From Ulota crispa (Eukaryota; Streptophyta; Bryopsida; Orthotrichales; Orthotrichaceae), in NCBI GenBank assembly GCA_963920765.1, contig OY987244.1, positions 15,936,501-16,000,500 on the forward strand: a stretch of DNA of 64,000 nt. Reading direction: 5' to 3'. This document shows, piece after piece, positions 6,166 to 57,636 of the stretch. A program made the translations under genes and the position numbers. The stretch's first letter is position 1; each line of letters opens with the position of its first letter. The notes under the pieces were generated by a model, which made no database searches, was not told the origin of the DNA, and saw only the letters and a program-made list of their open reading frames with translations.

Positions 6166-6358
6166 CTACACTAAATATTGCATTTAGGTTGTTCCACACT
6201 AATTCTCATATCTTACACTTTGATTGCTATAAAAATGATTTTCATCACTAATTAATGCAAAAAAGCCAATTTTAAAAAGCCTTGCAACATAACATTTAGT
6301 AGCTTGAAGAGAGGTTGCCTTTCCCTCTCTTTAGGTATCATCCATGAACTTCATCTTG

Positions 6359-6362
<4 letters not shown>

Positions 6363-6389
<27 letters not shown>
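6363..6389. repeat. (AT)n microsatellite
   Basis: Uninterrupted AT dinucleotides within the family A copy. Confidence 0.95.
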
Positions 6390-6396
<7 letters not shown>

Positions 6397-6513
6397 GATT
6401 AATATTAATAAAATTTCCCTGACATGTCTGGGCCCCACATTAAAGTATGTGCATTAAACCGAGCCTCTCTTTCATAAACTTTGACAAATTCAACCAAGTG
6501 TCCCCATAGTTAA

Positions 6514-6543
6514 AGAATGGTGTGGAATATTCCACACCATTCT
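6514..6543. repeat. Perfect 30 bp palindrome
   Basis: Arms AGAATGGTGTGGAAT and its exact complement with no loop. It lies inside the family A copy. Confidence 0.9.
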
Positions 6544-6701
6544 CTTGGAGGGAGGGTAACCTTTACTAATGCTAATAAATGTTATGAACCATTACAAAAC
6601 TGCTGCAGAAAAAATTAGCAAAGTTCAAGTTGTAAACTATGTGAAATCCAAACATGGTCAAACATTAGTGTGAGACAATCTAAATGCAATATTGAGTGTA
6701 G

Positions 6702-11541: not shown

Positions 11542-13222
11542 ATGTCAACGACGTGGAGGAAGTGTCGACGCACAACAGCAGAGCAAGCATCGCCCAGTGG
11601 TGCGAGGAAATCTAGCATTCAGGATATATTTGAGCCAACATCGTCGTCTTCATCCGATTCTCCATCCCCGCCACGCAATCGTCGTCCGGGGTTCAGGAGA
11701 ATGGTGAAGAAAATAGTGCACCACCACCCGCGGAGCAGTAGCATTGTGCCTGATCATGTGGACCCGGAGTGCATGGCCAAAGAGTTCGTGGGAGTGAGGT
11801 ATCGAGTGGAAATCAACAAGTACGTGACGGAGATTCGGCCCACCAGGAGCAACAAGAAGATCTGGCTGGGCACGTACGACACCGCGGAAGAGGCTGCACG
11901 TGCGTTTGATATTGGCAACTTATGTTGTAAGAAAAACCTCCCTTTAAACTTCCCCGACTCGCCTCGTATGCTGCGTAAAATCTCCTCACGGTTGTCTCCG
12001 GATGAAGCTCGCAACGCCATCGCCAAGCTGGCCAAGGAAGTCGCACGCGTGGTCGTTAGTAATGTGCGATCCCCGGAGACGGCGAAACGGAAGGAGGTGG
12101 ATCGTGCTGCGGCGAAGAAAGCTCACCAACTGGTCCAGCAAGAATCTCTTGAATCCGACCAGCTGCAAGAACTACGAGAGGTACATCAGGTATACTGAAT
12201 ATTGCATTTAGGTTGCCTTGACAATTAAGTTGCCTTACCTTGGAAAAGTATGTCGTGACTCATCACTTGACCACTTGTAGGTGCATATAATTCTATATAA
12301 ATTGGATTCCACAAATTTGGATTTCACATGGTCTATGACTTGGAAGGAAGCCGCTAACTTTATTTGCTGTTGTGGAGCTTAGTTATTGTTGCCAGACCTT
12401 TAGAAAGTTATTTAGGGAATTGATATGTGTACCACACCCTTTCAATTACTGTATCACACCGCAAAGTAAATTTTAGATTTCTACCACCATAGAGCTGAAT
12501 TTGAGAATTTGGAATTCAGATTTGAACTTAGAGACCATGATTTTGTTTAGAACTACAAAAAAAAGTTACAATTCAACACCCAATGAAAAAGCTAATCTTT
12601 TTTTACAAATAAAAGTAAAAGTAACACTTTTCTCCCTAGTTAAACTTTTTCATTGGGTGTTGTTGAATTGCAACTTTTTTTATGATTCTAGATTAAATCA
12701 TGGTCTCTAAGTCCAAATCTTAATTCCAAATTTTCAAATTCAGTTTTATGATGGTAGAAATCTAAAATTTACTTTGCGGTGTGATACAGTAATTGAAAGG
12801 GTGTGATACACATATCAATTCCCAATTGTTTATTGCAATAATCATTGATGAAGATTACTATAGCAGCAGTAAATATTTATATGGTGTAAAATGTCGAGAA
12901 ATTAGTCTAGGAGCAACTCAAACGCAATATTCAGTGTAACTTATATCAGTGGGATCCAACACTACAGGCGGATTCTCAAACGCAACGTGTTCGAACTGAA
13001 ACCTTTGCGGCCGTCACGTACACCGAAGCAATTCCGGACACGCAACACGTCGTGGAAGAATCGGACTTGGTGGCGACGTCCATGGCGATGAATGCTGCTG
13101 GTGGCGAAGGAGGCTCCGGAGGCAGCTTTGACGTGACGCTCGTGTTTTTTGACGATGAGCGAGCTCACGTTCCTCTTCACCAGCTCATCAATTTTGGTCC
13201 GGATCAACACAAGTCGTACTAA
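11542..13222 (+). CDS. AP2/ERF-domain transcription factor with a transposon-derived intron
   Basis: AP2/ERF proteins bind DNA and regulate transcription in the nucleus. Exon 1 (11542-12189, 216 codons) and exon 2 (12950-13222, 90 codons plus TAA) join in phase 0 through CAG/GTATAC and TATATCAG/TGG, giving 306 residues. The AP2 domain is at about 82-139: FVGVRYR, then EIRP, KKIWLGTYDTAEEAARAFD, and LNFPDSP. The usual WGKW segment of the first strand is replaced by VEINKYV, so DNA contacts may differ; the C-terminal half is canonical. The N terminus is Ser/Pro-rich, then basic and His-rich (MVKKIVHHHP). The tail has a Gly/Ser linker and ends LHQLINFGPDQHKSY. Read without splicing, the frame would stop at 12196-12198 inside the element. 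Subfamily not determined. See the element entries at 12190 and 13222. Confidence 0.88.
12190..12939. mobile_element. Family A element forming the ERF intron
   Basis: Left end GTATACTGAATATTGCATTT; right end CAATATTCAGTGTAA. Both match family A ends (consensus CTACACTGAATATTGCATTT). The intron is 12190-12949: its GT is the element's first two bases, and its AG lies in 8 bp (TATATCAG, 12942-12949) that repeat 7 of 8 bases of the exon end before the element (TACATCAG, 12182-12189), as a target duplication would. It carries a nested foldback at 12415-12823. Confidence 0.85.
12415..12823. mobile_element. Foldback element nested in the family A copy
   Basis: About 180 bp inverted arms, from GGGAATTGATATGTGTACCA on the left to the complement on the right, around a short loop. 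Related family A copies (30540, 14600) lack it, so it inserted after. Target duplication unclear. Confidence 0.8.
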
Positions 13223-14088: not shown

Positions 14089-14722
14089 CTACATTGAATA
14101 TTACATTTAGGTTTCCTTAACAATTAAGTTGTGTTACCCTCAAAAATTACAAAATGACTTATCACTTGGTCACTTGGAGATGCATGCAACTCTCTAAATA
14201 CTTGGAATTCACATAGTTTACAACTTAAATGTTGCTAAGGTAGTTTGCTCATAAACTGTCTAGGCATTAAAACCACCCACCTTCTCAAATTTACACTTAT
14301 TGTACATGCTTTTTTTCCTAGGTTTTCAAAATGTACAAGGAGTGTACATTTGAAGAGATGGGCGGTTTTAGAGACCTGTGACCTTTCCACTTCAAAATTT
14401 CATAACTAATTCCACAAAGCTCCAAAAAATATGAAATAACTTGGGTTAGATGTTAATTCTTCTTGTCTTTCACGGAAAATTTGCTGAAAAATAGTTCAAG
14501 AAGTTTCACCTCCTCAAAATTCAATTTCAGCCCTTAGATGGATGGTTTATGAGCACACTACTTTAGTTTTGTTTCTCTACAACTTTGTTGTTGTTGCAAG
14601 GCCCTTAAGATTTGTTCATTGCAGTAATTATTAATGAGATTAATGAGATTACTGTAGCAGCAATAAATATTTATGTAGTGTAAAATGTTGAGAAATTAAT
14701 GTGGGACAACCTAAGCGCAATA
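14089..14722. mobile_element. Family A element interrupted by family B
   Basis: Left end CTACATTGAATATTACATTT; right side ends near CAACCTAAGCGCAATA, with the outermost bases lost. The body matches the copy at 30375-30667 once 14238-14563 is removed. Confidence 0.75.
14238..14563. mobile_element. Family B element nested in family A
   Basis: Ends AGGTAGTTTGCTCATAAA and its inverted partner (AGTAGTGTGCTCATAAA on the other strand); TA at 14236-14237 and 14564-14565. Closest relative is the copy at 16608. Confidence 0.85.
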
Positions 14723-27105: not shown

Positions 27106-27543
27106 CTAATAAGCAGGGATCCGTGAGTAGGAGTAACCCTTATAACCACGCCATGAGTAATAAGCAATGCGAGTCTCATAGAACCCAGGGAGGAAAAGGA
27201 GAATGCCGAGCACCAGAAACCCATAAGCCTGCGAGGAGTCGCCCTCCATGTGCTCGGTGTAGATGAACTGCGAGATGACCAGAAATAGGCAGCCACATGC
27301 AAGCAAAACCACCGCCAGAGCAATAGACTTCCACGGCACTTCCTCCGGGAGCTCAAAGCGGTACCGCAGGTCCTCGTGAGCGGCCGTCGTCCGCCCGCTG
27401 AACGTCGACTTCTCCCCGCGCCGATCGTCTTGGAGAGACGCAAGCGTCGAGTAACGCAACGAAGCAGCCGACCGTTCTCCCATTTCCCCCCTCGTTGACA
27501 CGCGCACACCTCGCAGATGAGTAATGCACACCTTCGGCGTCAT
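27106..27543 (-). CDS. TMEM230: TMEM230/DUF872-like small membrane protein
   Basis: TMEM230 (DUF872) proteins are two-pass membrane proteins; animal members act in vesicle trafficking, and the plant role is not defined. The single exon encodes 145 residues. The family signature is clear: FELPEEVPWKSIALAV (63-78), a first membrane helix (about 74-95), FIYTEHMEGDSSQAYGFL, a second helix (about 107-121), then LPGFYETRIAYYSWRGYKG (118-136) and the C-terminal RIPAY before TAG. The first ATG is at 27543; an in-frame ATG at 27483 (MGERSAASLRYS) would remove 20 residues and is nearer the usual family length. The N-terminal 60 residues are polar and unlike other plants. Intronless here. Other frames over the same bases are shadows. 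Confidence 0.92.
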   Translation of the reverse strand: MTPKVCITHLRGVRVSTRGEMGERSAASLRYSTLASLQDDRRGEKSTFSGRTTAAHEDLRYRFELPEEVPWKSIALAVVLLACGCLFLVISQFIYTEHMEGDSSQAYGFLVLGILLFLPGFYETRIAYYSWRGYKGYSYSRIPAY

Positions 27544-29935: not shown

Positions 29936-30667
29936 TACAGTGAATATTACATTTAAGGGATGTACACCCATAACCGACCATTTAAGCGTGTGGGGTACCG
30001 TGAGGTCTTAGAAAATTCATGAAAAAATCTGTAGGATTAGCCCTTTAACAAGCTATCATAGAATGTGATTTTTGTGGAAAAAAATATAGTAAATTATTTT
30101 CTATTAAATGGCAAAGTTGCAGCTCATAGGGTCCCTAAAAGTAATTCTAGACTACCCTTGAAAGTGCTTAGATATGTTCCTATACATGTATTTGACGATC
30201 CCAATCCCAACCCCTCCAAACTAGCTCCTAAGCTAACATGTGGCAAGAATTGCTTGTGCAAGTGGCATTCCCTTCTTCACTTTGGGTTCAAAGTGAGTGG
30301 TGAACACTCCAAATTAACGTAGCTTAAGTAGTAGGGTCAGATTTAGGGACCGGTTGGAGAAGGGTGTACATACCTTAGGTTGCCTTGTCAATTAGGTTGC
30401 CTTACCTTGGAAAATTACCTCATGACTCATCACTTGGCTACTTGGAGGTGCATGTAACTCTCTAAAAATTTGAATTTCACATGGTATGAGACTTCCAAGA
30501 AGTTGCTAGTTTGTTGTTTTGGAGCTTTGTTGTTGTTGCTAGAGCTTTTAAATTTTGTTTATTGCAATAATTATTGATGAACATTACTGTAGCAACAATA
30601 AATATATACATAGTGCAAAACCTACAGAAATTAGTGTGGAGCAACCTAAATGCAATATTCATTGTAG
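29936..30667. mobile_element. Family A element, interrupted
   Basis: Left CTACAGTGAATATTACATTT; right CAATATTCATTGTAG. The body after 30375 matches the ERF-intron copy. No clear target duplication. Confidence 0.8.
29957..30374. mobile_element. Harbinger-like element nested in family A
   Basis: Inverted ends AGGGATGTACACCC and GGTATGTACACCC; direct repeat TTA at 29954-29956 and 30375-30377. Removing it with one TTA restores the family A sequence ACATTTAGGTTGCC. A 3 bp TTA duplication fits PIF/Harbinger. Confidence 0.7.
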
Positions 30668-34157: not shown

Positions 34158-34357
34158 NNNNNNNNNNNNNNNNNNNNNNNNNNNNNNNNNNNNNNNNNNN
34201 NNNNNNNNNNNNNNNNNNNNNNNNNNNNNNNNNNNNNNNNNNNNNNNNNNNNNNNNNNNNNNNNNNNNNNNNNNNNNNNNNNNNNNNNNNNNNNNNNNNN
34301 NNNNNNNNNNNNNNNNNNNNNNNNNNNNNNNNNNNNNNNNNNNNNNNNNNNNNNNNN
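34158..34357. other. Assembly gap of 200 N
   Basis: Exactly 200 undetermined bases beside an AT repeat. The round number suggests a placeholder or scaffold estimate. Frames crossing it are meaningless. Confidence 0.97.
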
Positions 34358-36659: not shown

Positions 36660-37125
36660 TGGGGGAAAAGCTGTTGGGCATGCGTCAAATCAACTGAAAG
36701 GGGGGGTTGGGATTTATTTCAGGGGAGAATCAAGATCTGGTGGTTGGCGGTTTTATGTGTTGGAGAATAATCAATTGGTCCCATGAATGTGACAATGAAT
36801 GGCACTTGAACGATCATGTTCCCCCCTTCCCTTCCTCCCTCCCAGGGTTCCCTTTTGTGGCAAAAGTTTGCCTAAAACTTATCTCAATTACACTAAAAAA
36901 TGGATGAAATTGTCAAAAACCTTTCGCAAGCAAATGTCAAAGTTTGCTAAATTTTGGATGAAAGTTTTTAATATTCATAAATTTTATGGATGAACATGCA
37001 CACCTTCGATCCTGTTGTATCCAGTTTTTCCTTGCTTGCATTGTTTGATGCGTGTTGCTCTACCAGCTATAAAATAATATAAAAGAACCCTATGACCGTC
37101 TTTAAAAAATTTGGGCGTAACCAGC
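36660..37125. other. Intergenic, no gene seen
   Basis: Contains the GGATGAACATGCAC phrase shared with 6126. Nothing else recognised. Confidence 0.4.
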
Positions 37126-56445: not shown

Positions 56446-57324
56446 TGTACAGTACTAGGCAAGCATGAATTGTCTGGTACCTTGTTGCAATTCAAAGAAC
56501 TTCCCATAATATATAGCAAAATTGAAATTTTGTTATTTTGAATCATAGAGATTGATTCTTATGCAATTCCAACCAAGCCTACCTAATTTTGATTCCAAAA
56601 AACCAAAACCCTATTTTGGGGGAATTATTTTGTATTAAATTCATGATTTTACATGAAAATTGATTGAAGAAAATTGGTGATGAATTTTTTAGATTTGATT
56701 ACATGGATATGTTGGAAACATCCATAAGCACATTTTCTCTTCTAAAAAGAACCCCCTTAAGTAACAAAATTATGATTGACAAAGAGTTCAATGTGAGGTG
56801 TGGTAAGACCAAAATTTGTAAAATAGATATTTCTTTATGATAATCAATTTTTGTTATGTGATTCATATATCGTGACTAAATTTGTACCTTTGAACATGAC
56901 AATATGTTTTCTTAGCCAAAAACAAGTTTAAAAATAAAAATATCTGTTTTACAAATTTTGGTCTTACCACACCTCACATTGAACTCTTTGTTGATCATAA
57001 TTTTGTTACTTAAGGGGGTTCTTTTTAGAAGAGAAAATGTGCATATGGATGTTTCCAACATATCCATGCAATCAAATCTAAAAAATTCATCACCAATTTT
57101 CTTCAATCAATTTTCATGTAAAATCATGAATTTAATACAAAATAATTCCCCCAAAATAGGGTTTTGGTTTTTTGGAATCAAAATTTGGTATGCTTGGTTG
57201 GGATTGCATAAGAATCAATCTCTATGATTCAAAATAACAAAATTTCAATTTTGCTATATATTATGGGAAGTTCTTTGAATTGCAACAAGGCACCGGACAA
57301 TTCATGCTTGCCTAGTATTGTACA
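56446..57324. mobile_element. Long foldback element, about 375 bp arms
   Basis: Ends TGTACAGTACTAGGC and GCCTAGTATTGTACA. Arms match almost base for base, for example GCAAGCATGAATTGTC and AAAACCCTATTTTGGGGGAA with their complements; the loop is about 56830-56940. Open frames in it are arm artefacts. Confidence 0.88.
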
Positions 57325-57636
57325 ATAAATATAGCATTTAAATTGCTCCACACTACTTTCTCAATTTTACACTAGATGAATACTTATTGATACTAGTAAT
57401 TTTCTTACTAATACTAGTAATTTTCATCAATGATTATTGCAACAAGCAAAATTTAAAGAGCTTGAAAACAACAATAAAGCTGCAAAAAATAAACTAGCAT
57501 CTTATAAGTAATAAACCATGTGAAACCTAGTATCTAAAGAGTTGCATGCACCTCTAAGTGACTAAGCAATGAGTCATGAGGTAACTTTCTAGGATAAGGT
57601 AGCATTAAGAAAACCTAAATGCAATATTTAATGAAG
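57320..57636. mobile_element. Family A element, inverted, unnested
   Basis: AATATAGCATTTAAATTGCTC at the left, CTAAATGCAATATTTAATGAAG at the right; internal GCATGCACCTCTAAGTGACT is the complement of the other copies. Its left end touches the foldback element. Confidence 0.72.

What the first reader, a model, noticed from the sequence alone, without database searches (positions are those of the whole stretch)
12182..12949. A plant intron apparently born from a transposon insertion
The ERF gene's only intron (12190-12949) is a family A element (12190-12939) plus 10 bp. The donor GT is the first two bases of the element. The acceptor AG lies in TATATCAG, which repeats 7 of 8 bases of the exon end TACATCAG, as a target duplication would. 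Splicing joins CAT CAG to TGG GAT in frame, so the mRNA equals the inferred pre-insertion gene. The mechanism (splice sites from element end plus target duplication) is known for introner-like elements in some algae and fungi; a clear single case in a plant transcription factor is notable. A second element nested inside shows the intron kept growing.
Basis: partly seen in the sequence, partly recalled or inferred. Interest (0 to 1): 0.85.

Follow-up and report, generated by a model that had tools for sequence, protein, structure and literature searches.

The report
Moss gene intron made of transposons

Summary
The ERF gene's interruption is almost entirely transposon: a full-length family A element (12193-12936) with a second element nested in it. 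The gene's one close paralogue (contig C6) is an unbroken reading frame across the site, so gain is likelier than inheritance.

The proposed mechanism is not supported. Family A duplicates 2 bp (TA), not 8: TA stands on both sides in 27 of 31 sampled full-length copies, array neighbours share one TA, and a related empty site holds a single TA. A flank match as good as TACATCAG/TATATCAG turns up in 16 of 380 mismatched flank pairs. The donor is a host G plus the T of the TA duplication; the acceptor is host sequence 11 nt outside the element, or the element's own CAG. Joined at TA, the flanks keep 14 extra nt and exon 2 is off by one, so the mRNA does not simply equal the old gene. Either a 1-nt change followed, or the element entered an older intron that then shrank. 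Splicing is untested; 10 of 18 nearby donor/acceptor pairs are in frame.

Intron gain from transposons is already documented in plants (rice; tabulated for maize). New member of a known kind.

The parts
11542..12189 (+). Exon 1 of the ERF gene, AP2 domain included
   Evidence: Open frame; Pfam AP2 E 1.7e-9; aligned to paralogue L010
12190..12190 (+). Host G, first base of the proposed donor CAG|GTATAC
   Evidence: Lies outside the TA-bordered element
12191..12192 (+). Left TA of the target duplication; its T is the second donor base
   Evidence: TA at both borders in 27 of 31 family copies; empty site L059/L068
12193..12414 (+). Left part of the family A MITE (includes 12406-12414, left 9-bp repeat of the nested element)
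   Evidence: Aligned end to end with the 302-bp consensus, 48 of 302 positions differ
12415..12823 (+). Nested foldback element, Mutator-like by its 9-bp duplication
   Evidence: 149-nt arms; 9-bp flank repeat 7/9 here, 9/9 in L002 and L005; 5.1% from the consensus of 7 relatives
12824..12936 (+). Right part of the family A MITE, ending CAATATTCAGTG
12933..12934 (+). AG in the element's own terminal repeat: alternative acceptor in the same phase
   Evidence: donor 12190 with acceptor 12934 gives a 311-aa frame
12937..12938 (+). Right TA of the target duplication
12939..12949 (+). Eleven non-element bases ACTTATATCAG with the proposed acceptor AG
   Evidence: outside the family consensus
12950..13222 (+). 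Exon 2 with stop codon
   Evidence: Open frame; aligned to L010, pN/pS 0.60

Best explanation
The intron arose when a TA-target (Tc1/mariner-type) MITE of family A inserted into the coding exon of an intronless ERF gene, after that gene had separated from its C6 paralogue. The insertion hit a TA beside CAG|G, so a host G and the T of the duplicated TA make the donor CAG|GTATAC; the acceptor is either the host AG at 12948-12949, 11 nt outside the element, or the CAG in the element's own right terminal repeat (12932-12934), which is in the same phase. A 1-nt change among the few non-element bases put the two exons in one frame. Later a Mutator-like MITE inserted inside and lengthened the intron. 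Shown: element borders, TA duplication, nesting, unbroken paralogue, open second exon. Inferred: that it is spliced, which acceptor is used, the 1-nt change, and that the target was exon and not an older intron.
For: The element covers the family consensus end to end (302 columns, 15.9% divergence). TA on both sides in 27 of 31 sampled copies, 19 of 23 outside the arrays L040 and L046; array neighbours share one TA; related empty site L059/L068 aligns over the junction with one TA and no gap there. Only 14 nt of the 760-nt interruption are neither element nor duplicated TA (counting one TA as host). Paralogue L010 is one open frame of 318 codons from its ATG through the site; 56 of the 68 other matches listed lie in open frames of 200 aa or more. 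Exon 2 is open and constrained: pN/pS 0.60 (bootstrap 0.45-0.80) over 87 codons, although the outer copy's divergence (0.16-0.19) and the nested copy's (0.05-0.06) put the insertion well in the past; unconstrained, exon 2 would stay intact with modelled probability 0.001-0.04 at d=0.16 and 0.13-0.38 at d=0.05 (assumed indel rates). The intron is AT-rich (68%) between exons of 46% AT, which suits plant intron recognition (general knowledge).
Against: No transcript was available. Flanks joined at TA are out of frame by one nt, so an extra 1-nt change must be assumed; the spliced form has 31 codons between anchors where the paralogue has 30, which suggests that the 14 nt are foreign to the old exon. 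The 11-nt remainder is AT-rich and looks as much like an old intron end as like coding sequence. No YTNAY branch-site match lies 18-40 nt upstream of either acceptor. The paralogue aligns poorly next to the site and no outgroup is held, so loss in C6 is not excluded; two neighbouring genes tested gave no C3/C6 synteny. pN/pS covers both branches since duplication, not only the time after insertion.
Confidence: 0.57

Rival explanations
1. The gene already had an intron here. The MITE inserted into the TA of its donor GTA, the rest of the old intron was later deleted down to ACTTATATCAG, and C6 either lost or never had the intron.
For: No frame problem arises. The 14 nt left at the joined site (GTAACT...TATATCAG) look like a donor and an acceptor, and the 11-nt remainder is AT-rich.
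Against: Needs a deletion that stopped almost exactly at the element's border on one side and spared the acceptor on the other. C6 has no intron and most listed AP2 matches lie in long open frames (56 of 68).
Confidence: 0.23
2. The element is not removed as an intron. Transcripts end or stop just inside it and give a truncated 224-aa ERF with an intact AP2 domain; exon 2 is a remnant.
For: The frame of exon 1 stops at 12196-12198, giving a complete frame with the AP2 domain. No RNA evidence for splicing; no YTNAY match in the usual range.
Against: Exon 2 is still open over 90 codons and similar to the paralogue to its end; an unconstrained exon 2 of the outer element's age would probably be broken (modelled).
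Confidence: 0.13
3. One reading: this insertion made an 8-bp duplication (TACATCAG), so that intron = element plus one copy of the target and the mRNA is unchanged. For this family it would need an abnormal event, such as capture of the MITE with a few flanking bases in the repair of a staggered break; direct repeats of 4-12 bp are reported at new Daphnia introns (PMC4202315, passages).
For: 7 of 8 bases match; the frame is exact; the codon count (31 against 30) fits.
Against: Family A duplicates TA. 0 of 20 copies show such a repeat, and 16 of 380 mismatched flank pairs do. Capture of exactly one whole MITE plus 3 and 5 bases would be a coincidence.
Confidence: 0.06

Closest known systems
Transposon-derived gained introns in rice duplicates (Lin et al. 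2006, PMC1779517; passages read)
   Same: Intron present in one of two duplicated genes, absent in the other, and similar to a transposon (2 of 5 gained introns there).
   Different: There based on full-length-cDNA-supported models with Arabidopsis as outgroup; here a MITE with both ends preserved, no transcript and no outgroup.
Ds-born intron in maize (Giroux et al. 1994; seen only as a reference-list entry in PMC3443670; details recalled)
   Same: Plant DNA transposon spliced out as an intron.
   Different: hAT element with 8-bp duplication (recalled); here a TA-target MITE with a 2-bp duplication and a nested second MITE.
Introners (Gozashti et al. 2022, PMC9860276; passages read)
   Same: A DNA transposon becomes an intron; families are reported that take both splice sites from the insertion site (Florenciella) or add codons (Aureococcus).
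   Different: Introners are families making many introns; here one case is seen. That survey reports none in land plants.
New ONSEN insertion intronised in an Arabidopsis exon (PMC12112155; abstract and passages read)
   Same: A transposon inserted in a plant exon can be spliced out soon after insertion.
   Different: LTR retrotransposon, seen with cDNA reads.
Tc1-like elements of the moss Physcomitrella (PMC4054914; passages read)
   Same: TA duplications and terminal inverted repeats.
   Different: Their ends read CAGT...ACTG and they encode a transposase; family A ends CACTG...CAGTG and its 302-bp consensus is too short for one.

Membership tests
TA-target MITE (Tc1/mariner, Stowaway-like) | 2-bp TA target duplication | tested here: met
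   27 of 31 sampled copies with TA on both sides; shared TA in arrays; empty site L059/L068 with one TA
TA-target MITE (Tc1/mariner, Stowaway-like) | Short element with terminal inverted repeats and many copies | tested here: met
   302-bp consensus with CACTGAATATTGC repeats; 1901 first-look candidates for the right end, of which 40 were scored
TA-target MITE (Tc1/mariner, Stowaway-like) | Mobilised by a DDE/D transposase gene bearing the same ends | tested here: inconclusive
   134 DDE_3 matches in the genome (150 of 206 candidates scored) and 95 exact ends; their positions were not compared systematically and no link was shown
Intron gain by transposon insertion | Intron consists of an element absent from a homologous gene | tested here: met
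   the homologue is a paralogue, not an orthologue
Intron gain by transposon insertion | Element is removed by splicing | not testable with these tools
   no RNA reads; in-frame GT/AG pairs exist (10 of 18)
Intron gain by transposon insertion | Outgroup or empty allele shows the uninterrupted exon | not testable with these tools
   no other plant genome is held; only the C6 paralogue
Introner | Many members of one family serve as introns in different genes | tested here: inconclusive
   Only 2 ends in the genome read exactly CAGGTAYACTGAATATTGC: this one and L069, whose longest stop-free stretch is 102 codons in 1,501 bp. Introns were not surveyed genome-wide
   0 of 20 copies with 7/8 or better; empty site shows TA only. 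Contrast: the nested inner family has 9-bp repeats of 7/9 or better in 4 of 7 relatives

The most novel reading that the evidence does not exclude
Family A makes introns on arrival: its terminal repeat carries a ready acceptor (ATATTCAG|TGTA) at whichever end lies downstream, and insertion at the TA of an exonic (C/A)AGGTA supplies the donor from the target. The ERF intron would then be one of several, the first introner-like MITE family in a land plant.
Probability: 0.1. Interest if true: 0.7.

Novelty: new member of a known kind. Interest (0 to 1): 0.36.

Why it matters
Cases in which the source of a new intron can still be read are few, and a large survey reports no introner families in land plants (PMC9860276, passages). 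This one keeps both element ends, so how splice sites can be assembled from target and element is open to direct test with RNA reads and one related genome. It also shows that a target duplication should be read from the whole family before a splice-site model is built on one copy.

Tried and rejected
Rejected: the 8-bp target duplication. Rejected as strong evidence: the in-frame junction, since 10 of 18 nearby donor/acceptor pairs are in frame. Tried: family A at exact CAGGTA elsewhere as an introner test; the one other exact hit (L069) shows no long open frame (longest stop-free stretch 102 codons over six frames). Tried: four copies at AAGGTA (L071-L074, 4 of 23 such ends); their flanks outside the element are unrelated to each other, coding status not established. 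Tried: synteny of C3 and C6 with two neighbouring genes; no copy near C6:17.9 Mb. Tried: C-terminal homology in 27 other AP2 loci; no match below E 0.1. Tried: DDE_3 transposases and exact family A ends preceded by G (95); no link established, positions not compared systematically. A Pfam scan of the flanks of sampled copies was considered and not done.

Full report
What is there. The window lies on contig C3 of a 274.8-Mb assembly with ten large contigs among 157. The psaB on contig C157 matches best 8htu, 6l35 and 7ksq among solved structures; I recall these as photosystem I of the moss Physcomitrium, so the organism is probably a moss, though no call names it. The gene at 11542-13222 encodes an AP2/ERF protein. 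The frame of exon 1 stops at 12196-12198, just inside a repeat, and an open frame similar to the paralogue's C-terminal part resumes at 12950.

The element. Family A has a 302-bp consensus with ends CACTGAATATTGC...GCAATATTCAGTG. In 31 full-length copies from 24 of the loci held, picked by their ends without regard to TA, TA stands on the left in 29, on the right in 28 and on both sides in 27; outside the arrays L040 and L046 it is both sides in 19 of 23. The loci are the best matches to this copy's right end, so this is a sample and not a census. In arrays, neighbours share one TA. Of 35 flank pairs joined at one TA, one (L059) aligns over the junction, with no gap there, to a stretch of L068 that lacks the element and holds a single TA; a second (window 6168-6698) aligns at only 67-69% to L008 and to window 36896-37064, with gaps nearby, and does not show the TA cleanly. 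The other hits across junctions listed lie in or between element arrays or are self-matches, and I did not use them. Hence the ERF copy is 12193-12936 with TA at 12191-12192 and 12937-12938. It covers the consensus end to end; 48 of 302 positions differ and there are 33 gap columns.

The nested element. 12415-12823 is a foldback element with 149-nt arms, 91% complementary. Nine-base flank repeats are 9/9 in L002 and L005, 8/9 in L003, 7/9 in L006 and here, and 2-4 of 9 in L004, L007 and L008 in that register. This suggests a Mutator-like MITE, an assignment from duplication length alone. It differs by 5.1% from the consensus of seven relatives. It also shows that the method sees 9-bp duplications where they exist.

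The proposed 8-bp duplication. Searching 14 nt on each side, 0 of 20 copies have an 8-mer match of 7/8 or better (11 of the 31 were dropped by a crude filter for family repeats in the flanks); 16 of 380 mismatched left/right pairs do. So a 7/8 match is uncommon but not remarkable, and CAG at both places is what splice consensus would favour anyway.

What follows for splicing. The donor G at 12190 is host sequence and the T belongs to the TA duplication. The acceptor AG at 12948-12949 lies outside the element; a second AG, at 12933-12934 in the element's terminal repeat, is in the same phase. Ten of 18 combinations of three donors and six acceptors near the borders give a complete frame. Joined at one TA, the flanks keep 14 nt (GTA + ACTTATATCAG) and exon 2 is off by one. 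The spliced form has 31 codons between shared anchors where the paralogue has 30, which mildly favours the 14 nt being foreign to the old exon; this counts against my favoured reading. No YTNAY match lies 18-40 nt upstream of either acceptor, a further point against, though plant branch sites are loose (general knowledge).

Gain or inheritance. The paralogue L010 on C6 is unbroken across the site, and 56 of the 68 other matches lie in frames of 200 aa or more (my count from the table). In 27 other AP2 loci no C-terminal homologue was found below E 0.1. Ks between C3 and C6 is about 1.3, far more than the element's divergence, so the insertion is probably younger than the duplication. Without an outgroup, loss in C6 is not excluded. 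Two neighbouring genes gave no C3/C6 synteny.

Is exon 2 alive? pN/pS is 0.60 for exon 2 (bootstrap 0.45-0.80; fraction 0.001 of 1,000 replicates at or above 1), 0.295 for exon 1 and 0.69 for the end of exon 1. This covers both lineages since duplication. The insertion is older than the nested copy (terminal branch 0.064) and may be as old as 0.19 substitutions per site. Unconstrained, exon 2 would remain intact with modelled probability 0.001-0.04 at 0.16 and 0.13-0.38 at 0.05 (indel rates assumed). Continued use of exon 2 is likely, not proven.

Known or new. A rice study found transposon-like sequence in two of five gained introns of duplicated genes (PMC1779517, passages). A review tabulates 35 transposon-insertion introns in Oryza, Drosophila, Oikopleura and Zea (PMC3443670, passages). 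Full-length ONSEN intronisation was seen for an exonic insertion in Arabidopsis (PMC12112155, abstract and passages). Introner families are reported absent from land plants, and families that take both splice sites from the target are known elsewhere (PMC9860276, passages). A review of plant MITEs, in the nine passages found by the terms intron, exon and splice site, speaks of altered splicing and gives no MITE-born intron (PMC12595863). A study of MSH1 genes reports intron number varying from zero to eight among bryophytes, without tying a gain to an element in the passages I saw (PMC10487979). My searches for MITE, Stowaway, moss or bryophyte cases showed none in titles and abstract starts; that is no proof of absence. 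I file this as a new member of a known kind, of moderate interest as a probable moss case of a TA-target MITE.

Noticed in passing
genome-wide; L071-L074: Of 43 family A ends matching CAGGTAYACTGAATATTGC with at most one mismatch, 23 read AAGGTA and only 2 exactly CAGGTA. Four of the AAGGTA copies have unrelated flanks, so this may be a target preference; unexplained.
   Followed up: partly
L040, L046: Arrays of several family A elements, neighbours separated by a single shared TA, as if the element often used its own TA border as a target.
   Followed up: partly
window 6168-6698, about 14095-14722, about 30375-30666, 57321-57628: Further family A copies or fragments in the window, so the gene sits in a MITE-rich neighbourhood.
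   Followed up: partly
window 27106-27543, minus strand: Open frame of 145 aa that reads like a TMEM230-type membrane protein (name recalled, not searched); a relative lies on C1 (65% identity over residues 20-145).
   Followed up: no
window 34158-34357: Run of 200 N, an assembly gap or a withheld stretch.
   Followed up: no
chromosome-sized contigs C1-C10: 46 of the 48 psaA/psaB matches lie outside contig C157, probably plastid DNA moved to the nucleus.
   Followed up: no
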